A DNA stretch of 22,231 bases from the IMG/VR virus record IMGVR_UViG_3300028388_001426, positions 1 through 22,231 of that record; one strand, 5' to 3'. Position 1 is the first letter of the stretch; every line of letters starts with the position of its first letter. The notes beneath the pieces are model-generated. The model was not told the DNA's origin. It did not search any database and saw only the letters and a program-made list of their open reading frames with translations. The position numbers were made by a program, and so were the translations under genes. This stretch comes from a virus. Of the stretch, positions 2-21,636 are shown piece after piece.

Positions 2-217
2 GACCATGATGTGTACGGGGACGCGGTGCAATGCGACTCCTGTGGGAAGTGGTCCTGCGAACAAAAGCGCATCGCAGAGCTTGAGGCCCAGCTTGCCGAT
101 GCGCGGGAGTGCCTGCGAATTTGGCAGGCAAGCGAAGAATCGCAGAGCGACGACGGACTCGATGCCGCCAAAAGGCTGAGGGATGCGCTACTACTGGAGG
201 ACAAGAGCGATGAATGA
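2..217 (+). CDS. Small Cys-rich/coiled-coil protein 1, possibly truncated at window edge
   Basis: Function unknown. The frame is open to the left edge, so the true start may lie outside; the first possible internal start is GTG at 11. The N-terminus has a CDSCGKWSC cluster (Cys spacing 2 and 4), which could bind a metal. A heptad segment, RIAELEAQLADARE, then reads as a short coiled coil. The C-terminus is KSDE, as in the third gene of this run. The stop is nested with the next start (ATGAATGA), so the two are translationally coupled. The 21 bases at 67-87 recur exactly at 881-901. This suggests a duplicated family of small accessory proteins; DNA or RNA binding is possible but not shown. Confidence 0.6.
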   Translation, partial: DHDVYGDAVQCDSCGKWSCEQKRIAELEAQLADARECLRIWQASEESQSDDGLDAAKRLRDALLLEDKSDE

Positions 218-515
218 TACATGCGATCAGTGCGGCAAAGAATTTGATCCCGACATGAGGATCGACCGGGAGGAGTATTGCCAATGCCCAGACCCCGATT
301 ACATGTTTGATGATCTAGAAGAGCCTCAGCGTGAGGCAGTTGAAAAATTGGAGAAGCGTATTGCAGAGCTTGAGGCAGAGAACGCGAAGCTGCGGAATAC
401 CCTCATAGCAGCAGAAGAAAGTCTAGCAACATATGTCGGCAGTTTTGGCTATCAAGACGGCGGAAAGCTGGTTCTTAAACAGGTGCGCCAAGCCCTTACG
501 GGTAGGAGTGAGTGA
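210..515 (+). CDS. Small Cys-rich/coiled-coil protein 2
   Basis: A 101-aa protein of unknown function. I chose ATG at 210 over an earlier ATG at 183 because GGAGG (196-200) sits 9 bases upstream and the start overlaps the preceding stop. Residues 5-8 are CDQC and a CQC follows near residue 28, a pattern like a small zinc ribbon. About residues 50-70 read RIAELEAENAKLR, a leucine-zipper-like heptad nearly identical to those of its neighbours. The C-terminal third is a further helical-looking segment. The chain is acidic overall. It is one of a tandem set of related mini-proteins, probably early or accessory phage genes. A role in protein-protein assembly through the coiled coil is inference. 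Confidence 0.7.
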   Translation: MNDTCDQCGKEFDPDMRIDREEYCQCPDPDYMFDDLEEPQREAVEKLEKRIAELEAENAKLRNTLIAAEESLATYVGSFGYQDGGKLVLKQVRQALTGRSE

Positions 516-811
516 TGGGGCCTGTAGTGAAACATCGCCACGGCGGTATAGATTGGGACGATGCCCCGTGCCCTATATGCAAAGCTCAAGAGGAAGTAGT
601 GCTTGAGTCACGAAGGAAACTTGCAGCCCAGCAAAGATATGAATCGGCGCTAAGGAAACTCGCAGAGCTTGAGGCTGAGAACGCAAAGTTACGCAGTTTG
701 TGTGCCGCTGCTGAGTGGCAAGGTATTCGCTGGAGAAACGGGCAAGACGCTGAACACCGCGAATGGGATAAAACATGGGAAGCGCTACAGGGGGGCAAGA
801 GCGATGAGTGA
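515..811 (+). CDS. Small Cys/His-rich coiled-coil protein 3
   Basis: A 98-aa protein of unknown function. ATG at 515 overlaps the previous stop (TGATG) and has GTAGGAG just upstream; a GTG at 512 is a less likely alternative. The N-terminus carries KHRHGGIDWDDAPCPIC, so two His and a CxxC could form a small metal site. Residues about 48-62 read LAELEAENAKLR, the shared coiled-coil segment. It ends in GKSDE, like protein 1. The 3' end (CAAGAGCGATGAGTGA) closely matches the end of protein 1, so the duplication seems to include the coupling junction to the next gene as well as the protein. No enzymatic motif is visible. Confidence 0.7.
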   Translation: MGPVVKHRHGGIDWDDAPCPICKAQEEVVLESRRKLAAQQRYESALRKLAELEAENAKLRSLCAAAEWQGIRWRNGQDAEHREWDKTWEALQGGKSDE

Positions 812-932
812 TCCACGCTGTGAATGCGCCGTGGTGTGGCCCGATGACGAAGGTCATCACCCTGAGTGCCCGGTCGGTCGGCGCATCGCAGAGCTTGAGG
901 CTGAGAACGAACGCCTTGCTGCTTCCATGTGA
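804..932 (+). CDS. Small Cys/His-rich protein 4, probably cut short by TGA
   Basis: A 42-aa reading frame starting at ATG 804, within the stop of the previous gene (ATGAGTGA), with a GGGGG purine tract about 10 bases upstream. It has CEC near residue 6 and HHPEC near residue 18, followed by GRRIAELEAENERLAASM, the family's coiled-coil segment. The frame stops at TGA 930-932 but continues open in the same register for 64 more codons. The second part carries another family-like heptad. Full length would be about 107 codons, close to proteins 2 and 3, so this is probably the first half of a broken or recoded gene. Confidence 0.55.
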   Translation: MSDPRCECAVVWPDDEGHHPECPVGRRIAELEAENERLAASM

Positions 933-17840: not shown

Positions 17841-17864
17841 AAAAAAGGCACCCCGTAGGTGCCT
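17841..17864 (-). terminator. Intrinsic terminator (second of two)
   Basis: On the minus strand AGGCACC-TACGG-GGTGCCT is followed by TTTTT. The 7-bp stem is perfect. It lies directly before the gpW-like ribosome site and 27 bases after another terminator. Confidence 0.8.
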
Positions 17865-17885: not shown

Positions 17886-17919
17886 TAAAAAGGCGACCGA
17901 AGTCGCCTAGTAAAAAAAG
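17886..17919 (-). terminator. Intrinsic terminator (first of two)
   Basis: AGGCGAC-TTCG-GTCGCCT on the minus strand, a 7-bp stem with the stable TTCG loop, is followed by TTTTTAATA and preceded by a T-rich tract (17912-17918). It ends the insert carrying the helix-turn-helix gene. Confidence 0.8.
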
Positions 17920-17926
17920 ATGCTTA

Positions 17927-18068
17927 TGCCTGCCTTACCAGGCCGCGCCTCGCCGCGCCGAGCCTCGCCGTGCCAATCCTTTCCTGCCAATCCGCGCCCC
18001 GCCGTGCCTCGCCTCGCCTGCCATACCGATCCAAGTCTGGCCGAGTATCGCCCTGCCATGCCTGCCTA
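17927..18068 (-). repeat. GGCNN pentanucleotide array A
   Basis: Read on the minus strand this gap is mostly GGC plus two variable bases repeated every 5 bases. GCC (plus strand) occurs in perfect register seven times at 17942-17974 and again at 17996, 18001, 18006, 18011 and 18016, with a few TCC variants and one-base slips. TGCCTGCCT (plus strand) bounds it at 17927-17935 and 18059-18067. It starts at the stop codon of the helix-turn-helix gene. It is not plausibly coding: the period of 5 cycles through all three frames. Confidence 0.75.
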
Positions 18069-18248
18069 TTCGGGCGGGTACTTGATCCCGTTCTTGATGC
18101 AAAACAGCTCCACCAGTCCGGGCGGCATTTCCCGATCACCGGACTCGTATCGCTGCCATGACCTTTCGGCAATCTGAACGCAGCGCGCAGCCTGGGCTAT
18201 TGAAAGCCCAACCCCTTTGCGCATTTGCTTGATTGCCTCTGGTGTCAT
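18066..18248 (-). CDS. Small XRE-type helix-turn-helix protein
   Basis: A 60-aa protein made almost only of a DNA-binding domain. Residues 16-37 (SIAQAARCVQIAERSWQRYE) fit the helix-turn-helix core of the XRE/Cro family, and a helix and short tail follow (LVELFCIKNGIKYPPE). It is likely a transcription factor binding DNA as a dimer. It is unusual inside a head-gene operon: it lies between two GGCNN arrays and is followed by two terminators. There is no strong ribosome site before ATG 18248 (the upstream bases belong to the array), so expression may be low. Candidate targets in the window are the palindromes at 1472 and 19660; that link is speculative. Confidence 0.7.
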   Translation of the reverse strand: MTPEAIKQMRKGVGLSIAQAARCVQIAERSWQRYESGDREMPPGLVELFCIKNGIKYPPE

Positions 18249-18257
18249 GATCTCTGT

Positions 18258-18355
18258 TGCCTGCCTCGCCTATCCTTCCAAGCCCCGCCAGGTCTCGCCA
18301 GTCTGAACCCGGCCTCGCCACGCCGCGCCTCGCCGCGCCTCGCCATGCCTGCCTA
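18258..18355 (-). repeat. GGCNN pentanucleotide array B
   Basis: A second array fills the gap between the 151-aa gene and the helix-turn-helix gene. GCC (plus strand) appears in perfect 5-base register eight times, at 18312, 18317, 18322, 18327, 18332, 18337, 18342 and 18347. TGCCTGCCT bounds it at 18258-18266 and 18346-18354. A 14-base segment, GCCATGCCTGCCTA, at 18342-18355 is identical to 18055-18068 of array A. Confidence 0.78.
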
Positions 18356-18357
18356 GA

Positions 18358-18813
18358 CTATGCCGCCTGAGCTACGCCCTCAATCTGAGCGCGCAGCGCG
18401 GCAATCTCGCCTTCAAGCCCGACAGAATGAGCCACATCGTAGGCGCGCTGCAATGCAGCATCCGCCCTCGAAAGCTCAGACAACAGGGCCCGGCGCGCCT
18501 TTTCCGTATCACTGCGAAGCGATACCGTGGACACGTAACCCTGCTCTCGGCGATCACAGTCCGGGTCGCGGACGTAGCCGATGGCGGTCAGATGGTATTT
18601 AGTCGTCTTGATCTCGATCTTGACGGAGCGAATCAGGCGCCGCGCCTCTTCCAGATTCCACTTGCGCGCCGCTTCCTCTGAATCCCACGTAAACTCAGAG
18701 TGCAGCGGGCTTTCAGGGTCACGCGCATCTTGCAGGACGATATCGGGAGTCAGAGACCCCCGAGCATCGTGCAGTTCCTGCAATCGCTGCCGAACTTCAA
18801 GCGATGCGCTCAT
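18358..18813 (-). CDS. Conserved-looking phage hypothetical protein, 151 aa
   Basis: Function unknown. The N-terminal half (TPDIVLQDARDPESPLHSEF, then TWDSEEAARKW) is a pattern I recall from other phage proteins without assigned role. A charged, strand-containing middle (RSVKIEIKTTKYHLTAIGYV) contains DPDCDRREQGY. The C-terminal 55 residues are strongly helical (SELSRADAALQRAYDVAHS) and could form a coiled coil. ATG 18813 overlaps the stop of the 260-aa gene, so the two are coupled and probably act together. It ends at a TAG that is the start of GGCNN array B. It has no membrane segment or clear catalytic motif. Confidence 0.7.
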   Translation of the reverse strand: MSASLEVRQRLQELHDARGSLTPDIVLQDARDPESPLHSEFTWDSEEAARKWNLEEARRLIRSVKIEIKTTKYHLTAIGYVRDPDCDRREQGYVSTVSLRSDTEKARRALLSELSRADAALQRAYDVAHSVGLEGEIAALRAQIEGVAQAA

Positions 18814-19592
18814 GCCGCATCCTTCCCGCCGACTATGGAAAGGCCGCGATTGTCGGCTTCGTCATCAAACCACGACAGCAAATCTTCCGTTTCCTGGTCA
18901 TAGCAGACAGGATCGCGCATCGCGGCAATCTGGTGGTCCCTGCCGTACGTGTTCAGGATTGAGACGAAGCGCTCGTCATCTTCTGAGACAACCTGGAACT
19001 GTCCATAGTTGCCAGACCCCTTCTCTGGCCGCCAGTCGCCGACGCCCTGGATCAGCCCAGCCGTTGCCAGTAGATTGGCAACCGTCTTGACGTTAAGCAC
19101 CGGCTCAACAAATGAAACCGTCAGCTTGCAGGCCCAGTGCGGAATGATCGCCCGAGACCTGATATCAGGGGTCTTGTTCATGTCGGCGGATCGCGTTACC
19201 GACATCAGCAGGCGCACGTCACCATAAATGGGTACTCGCTCACCGTTCACCCACAGCAGTCGCCCGAGCTGGGCCTTGGTAGCGCCAGGGACATCGACCC
19301 CCGCACCGCGAATGGCGGCCTTGAACGCCGTCGCCAAGTGCTCTATCAGGGTTGGCGCACCGTCGTCCTGATTGGTGTAGGGAGAATCCCGGAACTCCTG
19401 ATAGGGGTTGTGCTTGAGAGACCGCGCTTTTTCCGCCGCCGTCTTGCGACCCTTCGGCATCAGCAGCTCGTGCTTTGCCTTCTCGGACATGCGATTCAGG
19501 ATAATCGGGGTTTTGCCGAGAATGCAGAAATCCACACTCCCAACATCCATCTCTACAACGTCGATTGACGCTGATTTCTTTTGTGCTGCCAT
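18810..19592 (-). CDS. Phage protein of unknown function, 260 aa, possible RAMP-like fold
   Basis: Not a standard head gene though placed directly after terL. ATG 19592 has GAGGAG 8 bases upstream. The N-terminus gives a strand (VDFCILGKTPIILNRMSEKA) followed by a basic stretch (MPKGRKTAAEKARSLKHNP). The middle has HLATAFKAAIRGAG and SVTRSADMNKTPDIRSRAII. The C-terminal half ends a strand-helix run with a Gly-rich segment, GVGDWRPEKGSGNYGQF. Strand-helix-strand order plus that Gly-rich loop recalls ferredoxin-like RAMP proteins such as Cas7, but this is a weak, pattern-only resemblance. The Arg-rich surface suggests nucleic-acid binding. It is coupled to the 151-aa gene. Confidence 0.7.
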   Translation of the reverse strand: MAAQKKSASIDVVEMDVGSVDFCILGKTPIILNRMSEKAKHELLMPKGRKTAAEKARSLKHNPYQEFRDSPYTNQDDGAPTLIEHLATAFKAAIRGAGVDVPGATKAQLGRLLWVNGERVPIYGDVRLLMSVTRSADMNKTPDIRSRAIIPHWACKLTVSFVEPVLNVKTVANLLATAGLIQGVGDWRPEKGSGNYGQFQVVSEDDERFVSILNTYGRDHQIAAMRDPVCYDQETEDLLSWFDDEADNRGLSIVGGKDAA

Positions 19593-19659
19593 AATCTTTA
19601 CTCCTCGGCTGAAGCCGTAGACTGTGATGTGCGTGACCTAAGCCACACCCCAACAATAG

Positions 19660-19672
19660 CGACCATTGGTCG
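19660..19672. promoter_or_regulatory. 13-bp palindrome after terL
   Basis: CGACCATTGGTCG has perfect 6-bp arms around one base. It lies 5 bases behind the terL stop and 67 bases before the 260-aa gene. Its inner 11 bases (GACCATTGGTC) are identical to those of the palindrome at 1472-1486. It may be an operator for a regulator governing the three-gene insert. I see no convincing -35/-10 pair beside it. Confidence 0.4.
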
Positions 19673-19677
19673 GGATG

Positions 19678-21636
19678 TCAACTCCAAAAGCTCGATTTCT
19701 TGAAGCTGACGCCGTTGCTCTGCTGCGTGTCCTGCTTTCGCTGAATGCTCAGGGCCTCCCGTTGACGGTCCCAGTCCGCATCCTGCCAGCGGTCAATGCC
19801 CTCGACCGTTGCCGCCGCCCTCGCGTAATTGCGGCAATCTAAAGGCTCATTGCGCTCCCTGATCTTTTCCCACGTCCGCACAGAATGACCGGTGCGCTTT
19901 TTCGTCGTAACCAACTGCTCAGAACACAGCCCCTTGAAGTAGTCCGACGCATACTCAGGAAACTCGCACCACCCTGGCGGCAGCGGGTCTCCGCTCTCTT
20001 CCGTGGGTCTCTCCAGCTTCAGGAAGCTGTATATCTCCTGCTTGAGCAGCCCGACACCCACCGGCCAAAGGTTCACCCCGCGGCGAATCTTCCGGCCCGA
20101 GTGATTCACATCCACAGACTTTGGGACGCCGACGATCGAGGACTGGTGATCGATACCCTTAATCGGGATTACCTGCGGCTGCTGAAACTCGCGGCAGAAG
20201 GTGTAAACCGTCTGTGTTTGAAAACCCGAATCAACCGCCGTGCACGACAGGGACAGCTGAGCGCCAGACGGATGCGGCCAGCGCTCATCACGTACCAGAC
20301 GCCGTATCGACTCCCACGGCCCCGCCGACGAAAGATCCGATGTGTCCCCAGGAATCACCCGATAGTCGATCGATTGCGAATGCTTGCGCGGCCCCCAGCC
20401 CACTACCTCAAGCTCCAGGCGATCCGGCTGGACATCGATGCCGCAGGTCAGCAGCGCCACCCACTCGGCAGGCTTGTTGCGGTGATACTCACCACCCCTC
20501 GACCGATCATAAAGCGGTTTCCACGGCGGCACATCGCCGGCCTTCTCCCACACCCGCCCTAGCGTCTGGTTCCACCAGGTCTGGAACTCTGTCGGGTTGT
20601 CCTTGCGGGCAAAAAAGTCCCGCATGATCTGGCCCCACGTTGTCATCGGGCTGTAGGCTGACCAGATGTGCACCGCGGCGTGCCGTGGCGCCCTGACCGG
20701 GCTGCCGTCCAGGTCAGTAAACTCGATGCCGTCGTGTGTCTGTATGTTCTTCTCGGCGTCTCGATACACGCAGTCCGACTGCGCCGCGTAGGCTTCCGGC
20801 TGCCCGAACATCGCTCCGCAATGCTCGCAGGCGTACTTCACATCGTCCAGATTGTCGCGATCTTCAACAATCAGGTTTTCAAACTTGAGATACTGCAGCC
20901 CTTCGCATTCTGGGCAGGGTATGTAGCACCGCAACAGGCACTCTGCCTTTTCAGCTCGCCTCGCGATCAAAGATCGATACTTAGTCGTCGGGGTAGACCC
21001 GCAAATCATCTTGCCGAAGAATGAGCCTTCGTTGCGCTTCCTGGCTAACAAGTCCGGCCGGCCTTCGCCCTCGACATCCTCGTCGAACCCGTCGAGTTCA
21101 TCCAGATACACCGTGTCGGCCGACTTCTCGCGAAAGTTCTTGCCCGCGGTGCCGCCCATCACCCACAACTTGCGGCGATTATCAAAGGTCTTGTCCGTCT
21201 GCGTGTTGCGCGGATCGTTCTTCCGTCCATACCAGCTCGCCAGATCCCGCACCGGCTTTACATCGCGGATCATCGGGTTGACGTGCTCTTTCATGAACCC
21301 CGCCGCCGCGGAATCAGTCGGCAGGTACGCAATCTGATTGCGTTTGCGGTGCTCAATCATATAAGCCACGCACGCCATGAGCATTTTGGTATACCCAACC
21401 CGCGCCGATTTCAGAATGTCGAGCTCTGGGATTGCGTCATTGCCCATCATGTTCAAAGGGACACGCTGATAGGGCAGCGTCAGCCAGCGGCCCTCAGAGT
21501 ACGAGGATTCCGCCGACATGAAAAAATTGGCGTCCGCCCAGTCGGCACAGTTGACCGGCGCCGTCCTGGCAATCGCGCTCAGCGGAACACTAACCGCCGC
21601 AGCATAGCCTTCAGCCCAGCGTGCGGAGATAGTCAT
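19678..21636 (-). CDS. Terminase large subunit (lambda gpA-type)
   Basis: A 652-aa packaging motor and DNA-cutting enzyme; lambda A has 641 aa. I start at ATG 21636 rather than TTG 21678: with this start the Walker A-type motif KSARVGYTKM begins at Lys76, the residue number known for lambda gpA. Walker B is TVYLDELDGFDED (about 175-187). Two CxxC pairs at 241/244 and 270/273 form a probable zinc site. The nuclease domain begins near CGIDVQPDRLELEVVGWG, with Asp400 a likely metal ligand. The gene overlaps the small subunit by 26 bases. Cohesive-end cutting is expected for this family but no cos site is in view. Confidence 0.95.
   Translation of the reverse strand: MTISARWAEGYAAAVSVPLSAIARTAPVNCADWADANFFMSAESSYSEGRWLTLPYQRVPLNMMGNDAIPELDILKSARVGYTKMLMACVAYMIEHRKRNQIAYLPTDSAAAGFMKEHVNPMIRDVKPVRDLASWYGRKNDPRNTQTDKTFDNRRKLWVMGGTAGKNFREKSADTVYLDELDGFDEDVEGEGRPDLLARKRNEGSFFGKMICGSTPTTKYRSLIARRAEKAECLLRCYIPCPECEGLQYLKFENLIVEDRDNLDDVKYACEHCGAMFGQPEAYAAQSDCVYRDAEKNIQTHDGIEFTDLDGSPVRAPRHAAVHIWSAYSPMTTWGQIMRDFFARKDNPTEFQTWWNQTLGRVWEKAGDVPPWKPLYDRSRGGEYHRNKPAEWVALLTCGIDVQPDRLELEVVGWGPRKHSQSIDYRVIPGDTSDLSSAGPWESIRRLVRDERWPHPSGAQLSLSCTAVDSGFQTQTVYTFCREFQQPQVIPIKGIDHQSSIVGVPKSVDVNHSGRKIRRGVNLWPVGVGLLKQEIYSFLKLERPTEESGDPLPPGWCEFPEYASDYFKGLCSEQLVTTKKRTGHSVRTWEKIRERNEPLDCRNYARAAATVEGIDRWQDADWDRQREALSIQRKQDTQQSNGVSFKKSSFWS

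What the first reader, a model, noticed from the sequence alone, without database searches (positions are those of the whole stretch)
17927..18355. GGCNN pentanucleotide arrays starting at stop codons and filling both gene gaps
Two intergenic gaps are degenerate arrays of GGC plus two variable bases with strict 5-base spacing (seven and eight consecutive units in perfect register). Both start with the same TAGGCAGGCATGGC, whose TAG is the stop codon of the helix-turn-helix gene for array A and lies 2 bases after the 151-aa gene stop for array B. All four array ends carry TGCCTGCCT (plus strand). A period of 5 excludes ordinary coding selection. It may be a replicating spacer element, a recombination substrate, or a G-rich RNA or protein-binding platform.
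Basis: seen in the sequence. Interest (0 to 1): 0.62.

Follow-up and report, generated by a model that had tools for sequence, protein, structure and literature searches.

The report
VIPR guide arrays in a phage
The odd GGC-plus-two-bases repeats are guide-RNA arrays of a recently described phage weapon called VIPR, a relative and possible ancestor of CRISPR, lying beside the gene for its RNA-binding protein in this phage.

Summary
On the minus (coding) strand, arrays A (18066-17926) and B (18353-18257) are runs of GGCNN with strict 5-nt phase: 7 and 8 perfect consecutive units, against at most 4 in 300 shuffles of the window. Single-base frame resets (GGCAGGC) sit inside the arrays and at all four ends. 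Over 119 IMG/VR stretches and many prokaryotic genomes carry the same kind of array. Of 184 loci with complex arrays, 156 encode a relative of the window's 260-aa protein, its 151-aa protein, or both. The 260-aa family matches PDB 36pp, "SUSP1 Vipr protein" (profile E=1.7e-12). Its confident AlphaFold model matches Csm3/Cas7-type RAMPs. This is therefore a VIPR system (PMC13142463, 2026). The GGC triplets are probably Vipr-binding positions, and the NN pairs probably read target DNA. The cassette (promoter-like site, vipr, accessory gene, array B, HTH gene, array A, two terminators) lies between the terminase and gpW/portal genes, like a moron. It differs from SUSP1: GGC instead of GGT, no leader or structured tail, continuous arrays phased by GGCA about every 50 nt, and a different accessory protein. 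No DNA target of the window's guides was found. It is a new member of a known kind.

The parts
19653..19681 (-). candidate sigma70-type promoter of the cassette (TTGACA, 17 nt, TATTGT)
   Evidence: consensus scan, 10 of 12 matches; one such site is expected by chance in the region, so weak
18810..19592 (-). vipr: 260-aa single-RRM RAMP protein with glycine-rich loop (GVGDWRPEKGSGNYGQF); PHROG family 4652, listed as unknown function
   Evidence: profile matches PDB 36pp SUSP1 Vipr, E 1.7e-12; AF2 model pLDDT 91.6, pTM 0.87; Foldseek and VIA-align top matches are Csm3/Cas7-type RAMPs; phrog_4652
18358..18813 (-). putative vipr-accessory protein (vap), 151 aa, PHROG family 15946, function unknown
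   Evidence: present in 131 of 184 complex-array loci, downstream of vipr in 115 of 121 loci with both; AF2 pLDDT 95.8; no clear PDB match
18257..18353 (-). vrRNA array B: GGCA at 18353, 14 units to a second reset (GGAA, 18279), 2 more units, closing GGCA at 18265
   Evidence: parsed directly from the sequence
18066..18248 (-). 60-aa HTH_31 protein gene lying between the two arrays; probably an optional neighbour, not a core part
   Evidence: Pfam HTH_31, E 1.2e-6; no homologue beside arrays in other loci
17926..18066 (-). vrRNA array A: three reset-bounded blocks of 8 units (18066-18023), 6 units (18022-17989) and 10 units (17988-17935), closing GGCA at 17934
   Evidence: parsed directly from the sequence
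17891..17908 (-). intrinsic terminator 1 just downstream of array A (AGGCGACTTCGGTCGCCT then TTTT)
   Evidence: terminator scan
17846..17864 (-). intrinsic terminator 2 (AGGCACCTACGGGGTGCCT then TTTTT)
   Evidence: terminator scan

Best explanation
The two arrays are the guide-RNA (vrRNA) arrays of a phage-encoded VIPR system. The neighbouring 260-aa gene encodes Vipr, a minimal RAMP protein related to the CRISPR backbone proteins Cas7/Csm3. Shown here: the arrays, the RAMP protein, their near-constant linkage, their shared strand and their independence from other genes. Inferred from the published system: the array is transcribed in the direction of the genes; each GGC triplet is held by one Vipr subunit; the NN pairs are displayed and pair with DNA, skipping one target base per pair; the complex represses genes of competing phages or prophages. 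In this clade, guides of about 8-13 units follow one another without leader or tail and are delimited by a one-nucleotide-short unit, GGCA (GGCAGGC), about every 50 nt. The 151-aa protein is the likely accessory factor (vap). The cassette probably has its own promoter and two terminators and sits between the terminase and head genes like a moron.
For: Sequence profile of the 260-aa family hits PDB 36pp 'SUSP1 Vipr protein', E=1.7e-12. The reverse check, the family HMM against SUSP1's own Vipr, gives 69 bits. AF2 model pLDDT 91.6; the Foldseek matches listed are from CRISPR complexes, mostly Csm and type VII (E from 1.9e-5), and VIA Z reaches 9.8. Of 184 loci with complex arrays, 146 have vipr, 131 the 151-aa gene and 156 either; 273 of 274 arrays share vipr's strand; median distance 121 nt; none of 13 loci with only simple-sequence GGCNN repeats has vipr. 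Annotated Mycobacterium phages (Saal, Donkeykong, DRBy19) and Gordonia phages (ODay, Pipp) with a vipr homologue all have a GGYNN array beside it. NN is hypervariable and the reset letter is A in 955 of 1000 cases. Array RNA has no excess secondary structure (z -0.5 and -0.6), as expected of a threaded guide. Literature: PMC13142463.
Against: No DNA target was found for the window's guides: no exact IMG/VR match to the 10-NN (A3) or 9-NN (B) decoded patterns, and the 8-NN matches do not extend and, where examined, lie in unrelated proteins, as chance predicts. Guides from Mycobacterium szulgai and mycobacteriophages also had no match in 198 genomes of that genus at up to 2 mismatches. A cross-search of 761 guides against the fetched loci gave no excess over shuffled guides under any skip rule. 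Several units of the window arrays are degenerate, and one block has only 6 units, below the published 9-16. No RNA data exist for this phage.
Confidence: 0.93

Rival explanations
1. A VIPR locus that is decaying: the gene pair is kept but the window's short arrays are partly mutated remnants that no longer guide.
For: The window's arrays are short (16 and 23 GGC/GGT units, against up to 233 in L135), with degenerate units and a 6-unit block; no targets were found.
Against: The longest runs keep perfect phase, all boundaries keep GGCAGGC, and vipr keeps its conserved K38, R147, W153, G-loop glycines and R188. Degenerate units also occur in large arrays of other loci.
Confidence: 0.12
2. A repeat that spreads by itself or serves as a recombination hot spot between genes.
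For: Arrays fill gaps between genes, occur in several gaps of one phage, and differ in length between related phages.
Against: Units are not copies of each other (NN hypervariable); arrays are almost confined to one two-gene cassette and one strand; simple GGCNN repeats elsewhere lack the cassette.
Confidence: 0.03
3. Operator arrays bound as double-stranded DNA by the HTH protein encoded between them.
For: The HTH gene lies exactly between the two arrays in the window.
Against: No relative of the HTH gene lies beside other arrays, while vipr does; 5-nt phasing with 4-nt resets does not follow the helical repeat of B-DNA.
Confidence: 0.02

Closest known systems
VIPR of Escherichia phage SUSP1 (PMC13142463; PDB 36pp; record KT454805)
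   Same: A RAMP protein of the same family, an accessory gene directly downstream, and intergenic arrays of GGY plus two variable bases on the vipr strand; phage-encoded.
   Different: SUSP1 uses mostly GGT units in separate RNAs with flanking leader sequence and a conserved 3' tail; here GGC units run continuously with GGCA resets and no tail. SUSP1's accessory protein (146 aa) is not detectably related to the 151-aa protein (1.2 bits).
VIPR types with 'staggered arrays with overlapping vrRNAs' (mentioned in PMC13142463, fig. S18)
   Same: By that wording, guides follow or overlap one another in one array, which fits the continuous arrays bounded by shared GGCAGGC elements seen here.
   Different: Could not be compared: the figure and supplement are not held. 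Whether the 4-nt reset or this accessory family is described there is unknown.
Class 1 CRISPR-Cas (types III and I; Cas7/Csm3 backbone)
   Same: RAMP fold with glycine-rich loop; by published analogy a protein that oligomerises along a guide RNA and disrupts pairing periodically.
   Different: No CRISPR repeats of the usual length; one small RAMP gene instead of several cas genes; the information lies in dinucleotides within 5-nt units.

Membership tests
VIPR | Vipr protein: RAMP homologue with a single RRM, thumb and G-loop | tested here: met
   Profile to PDB 36pp E 1.7e-12; reverse 69 bits; RAMP fold of confident model
VIPR | vrRNA tract of alternating GGY/NN units in intergenic DNA next to vipr | tested here: met
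   GGC 78%, GGT 6% of units across 680 blocks
VIPR | NN positions hypervariable between guides | tested here: met
   all 16 dinucleotides used; identical or near-identical guides are rare between loci
VIPR | 9-16 repeats per vrRNA | tested here: inconclusive
   Reset-bounded blocks have 8, 6 and 10 units (array A) and 14 (array B); across loci the commonest are 8-11. Real RNA ends unknown.
VIPR | one accessory (vap) gene beside vipr | tested here: inconclusive
VIPR | encoded in a phage or provirus | tested here: met
   Terminase, portal and tail genes around it; the record is a virus contig
VIPR | target DNA read with a 1-nt skip (xNN) | tested here: inconclusive
   No targets found. NN frequencies are nearest to codon positions 1-2 on the sense strand by KL, but log-odds do not discriminate the frames
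VIPR | vrRNA is transcribed and bound by Vipr | not testable with these tools
   Needs small-RNA sequencing and pull-down
VIPR type II (SUSP1 / P. fulva) | invariable structured 3' tail after each repeat tract | tested here: not met
   No common sequence follows the arrays beyond GGCAGGC, by inspection of array ends; SUSP1 tails seen for comparison
CRISPR-Cas | array of long near-identical repeats separated by unique spacers | tested here: not met
   Tandem Repeats Finder reports only short-period, degenerate arrays here, and the parsed units are 5 nt

The most novel reading that the evidence does not exclude
This clade uses a guide-array format not yet described: a continuous GGCNN tract in which a minimal frame-shifting element (GGCA before the next GGC) about every 49-54 nt serves as a 7-nt delimiter shared by successive guides, read or processed with the help of the 151-aa phrog_15946 protein, so that one short tract stores many guides without leader or tail.
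Probability: 0.3. Interest if true: 0.65.

Novelty: new member of a known kind. Interest (0 to 1): 0.55.

Why it matters
It assigns a likely function to two PHROG families listed as unknown (4652 as Vipr; 15946 as probable accessory protein). It shows that the RNA-guided VIPR system, first reported in 2026, can be found from raw sequence by its array pattern alone. It also adds a large GGC-type clade, found in phages or contigs assigned to actinobacteria, proteobacteria, planctomycetes and others. The regular GGCA reset gives a concrete, testable idea of how guides are delimited in continuous arrays. Isolated mycobacteriophages and Gordonia phages that carry the system offer laboratory models.

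Tried and rejected
Exact decoded guides of the window against IMG/VR gave no match for the 10-NN pattern of block A3 and the 9-NN pattern of block B. 8-NN patterns gave 9, 25 and 4 matches; the A3 and B matches did not extend to all remaining NN, A1 has no further NN to test, and the in-frame A3 matches lie in unrelated proteins. Guides of M. szulgai and mycobacteriophages had no match in 198 genomes of that genus, nor did the mycobacteriophage guide in IMG/VR. Cross-search of 761 guides against fetched loci with skips of 0-3 gave no excess over shuffled guides. Codon-phase test of NN: KL favours codon positions 1-2 (0.076 against 0.12-0.30), but after removing base composition the frames are not distinguishable, so I do not count it as support. 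BLASTN of arrays against phage records found nothing with a long array or a made-up array as query; the window region hit mycobacteriophage arrays. Rfam found nothing credible and no hammerhead near the arrays. Array RNA structure is not better than in shuffles. I first thought of a TRAP-like ring protein, because of about 11 triplets at 5-nt spacing; this was dropped when the RAMP match appeared. Fold searches listed no clear relative of the 151-aa protein, which leaves its fold undecided. PADLOC-DB (2023) gave no match for either core protein.

Full report
Observation. The finding is real. On the minus strand, which is the coding strand of all genes around it, the two gaps read GGCNN GGCNN and so on. 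The longest perfect runs are 8 units (18349-18310) and 7 units (17974-17940); in 300 dinucleotide-preserving shuffles of the window the longest run was 4, and GGC pairs at multiples of 5 nt exceed every one of 2000 shuffles of each array. Two corrections: some units are degenerate, and the phase is reset in places by a unit one base short, GGCA, giving lags of 4, 9 and 14 besides 5, 10 and 15. Parsed this way, array A holds blocks of 8, 6 and 10 units and array B one of 14 units plus a short remainder.

Distribution. The GTDB genome set gave 41 stretches, from named or binned Mycobacterium, Bradyrhizobium, Azohydromonas, Atopobiaceae, Planctomycetota, Armatimonadia, Acidobacteria and others. 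About a third of those 41 are simple-sequence repeats and a different thing. In 250 arrays the 4-nt step carries A in 955 of 1000 cases, and successive resets are mostly 39-64 nt apart, peaking at 49 and 54. Random single-base deletions would not give a fixed letter or a preferred spacing, so the reset is a real element.

The linked genes. BLASTN of the window region hit mycobacteriophages Saal, DRBy19, Gorge and Donkeykong; in the three that I opened (Saal, DRBy19, Donkeykong) the hit is an array directly upstream of two hypothetical genes. These two genes are relatives of the window's 260-aa and 151-aa genes. Profile searches over the fetched loci then showed the linkage. Of 184 loci with complex arrays, 146 encode the 260-aa family, 131 the 151-aa family and 156 at least one; many of the rest have the array at or near an end of the sequence held. 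273 of 274 arrays lie on the strand of the 260-aa gene, at a median distance of 121 nt. None of the 13 loci with only simple GGCNN repeats has a vipr gene. No other gene family recurs widely beyond ordinary phage genes such as a portal and, by my reading of their sequences, exonuclease- and RecT-like proteins. The HTH gene between the window's arrays is not part of the conserved set.

Identity. A profile of the 260-aa family finds PDB entry 36pp, SUSP1 Vipr protein, with E=1.7e-12. The AlphaFold2 model (pLDDT 91.6, pTM 0.87) matches CRISPR RAMP subunits: the Foldseek matches listed are from CRISPR complexes or subunits, mostly Csm and type VII, and VIA-align gives Z up to 9.8 with rmsd 4.0 over 137 residues. 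The literature search found one paper, PMC13142463, which reports VIPR: a minimal RAMP protein, an accessory gene, and RNAs of alternating GGY and NN in which the NN pairs read double-stranded DNA with one skipped target base each. That work shows transcription, binding, reprogrammable repression and phage defence for the SUSP1 system, and natural targets in competing phages, satellites and prophages. The window's locus fits this description in protein, array, gene order and phage context.

How it probably works here. Shown: the arrays, the RAMP protein, their linkage and shared strand. Suggested by sequence only: a promoter-like site at 19681-19653 (no better than chance by count) and two strong terminators at 17908-17891 and 17864-17846 bracket vipr, the 151-aa gene, array B, the HTH gene and array A as one transcription unit. 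In lambda the W gene directly follows A (own knowledge), so the unit looks like a moron inserted between them. Inferred from the published system: GGC triplets are held by Vipr subunits and NN pairs read the target. The array RNA has no unusual folding (z -0.5 and -0.6), which fits a threaded guide and not a structured RNA.

Differences from the characterised system. I read the SUSP1 locus directly. Its guides are mostly GGT units in separate tracts with a common tail, and its accessory protein is not detectably related to the 151-aa protein. Here the units are GGC, run continuously, lack a tail and are phased by GGCA. The paper mentions staggered arrays with overlapping guides, which may be this form, but its supplement is not held, so I cannot say whether this clade, its reset element or its accessory protein has been described.

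What failed. No DNA target was found for the window's guides or for the few others tried. I could not scan the annotated phage collection by pattern, so this is a weak negative. The base usage of NN is nearest to codon positions 1-2, but a composition-corrected test does not single out that frame. The targeting rule is therefore taken from the paper and not confirmed here for this clade.

Verdict. The identification as a VIPR locus is firm. The novelty is that of a new member of a known kind, with an array format that may or may not be one of the published types.

Noticed in passing
L195 5902-6066 (DRBy19 gp51), L194 5761-6147 (Donkeykong gp48), L197 3629-3898 (Pipp gp43): Annotated 'hypothetical protein' genes in these phages lie on or overlap the vrRNA arrays, so they are probably spurious genes called over non-coding guide DNA.
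   Followed up: partly
L135 12350-13549: Very large array: 233 GGC/GGT units with 28 GGCAGG resets in 1.2 kb, which would be over twenty guides in one tract.
   Followed up: no
L154, L158, L164, L165, L177, L185, L188: Low-complexity GGCNN tandem repeats (one or a few NN types repeated) in Streptomyces, Pseudacidovorax and other genomes, without a vipr gene; a different phenomenon that the same pattern picks up.
   Followed up: partly
L014 / L016 and L021 / L036: Phages with similar array flanks have arrays of different length and many different guides, so guide content appears to turn over faster than the flanking DNA. How new NN sequences arise is unexplained.
   Followed up: no
L196 (Gordonia phage ODay) 2938-3567: Here too vipr sits inside the structural gene cluster (between tail assembly chaperone and tape measure genes), as in the window.
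   Followed up: no
window 183-932, + strand: Three overlapping short ORFs each carry a similar coiled-coil stretch (ELEAENAKLR or ELEAENERL), apparently a repeated segment near the contig end.
   Followed up: no
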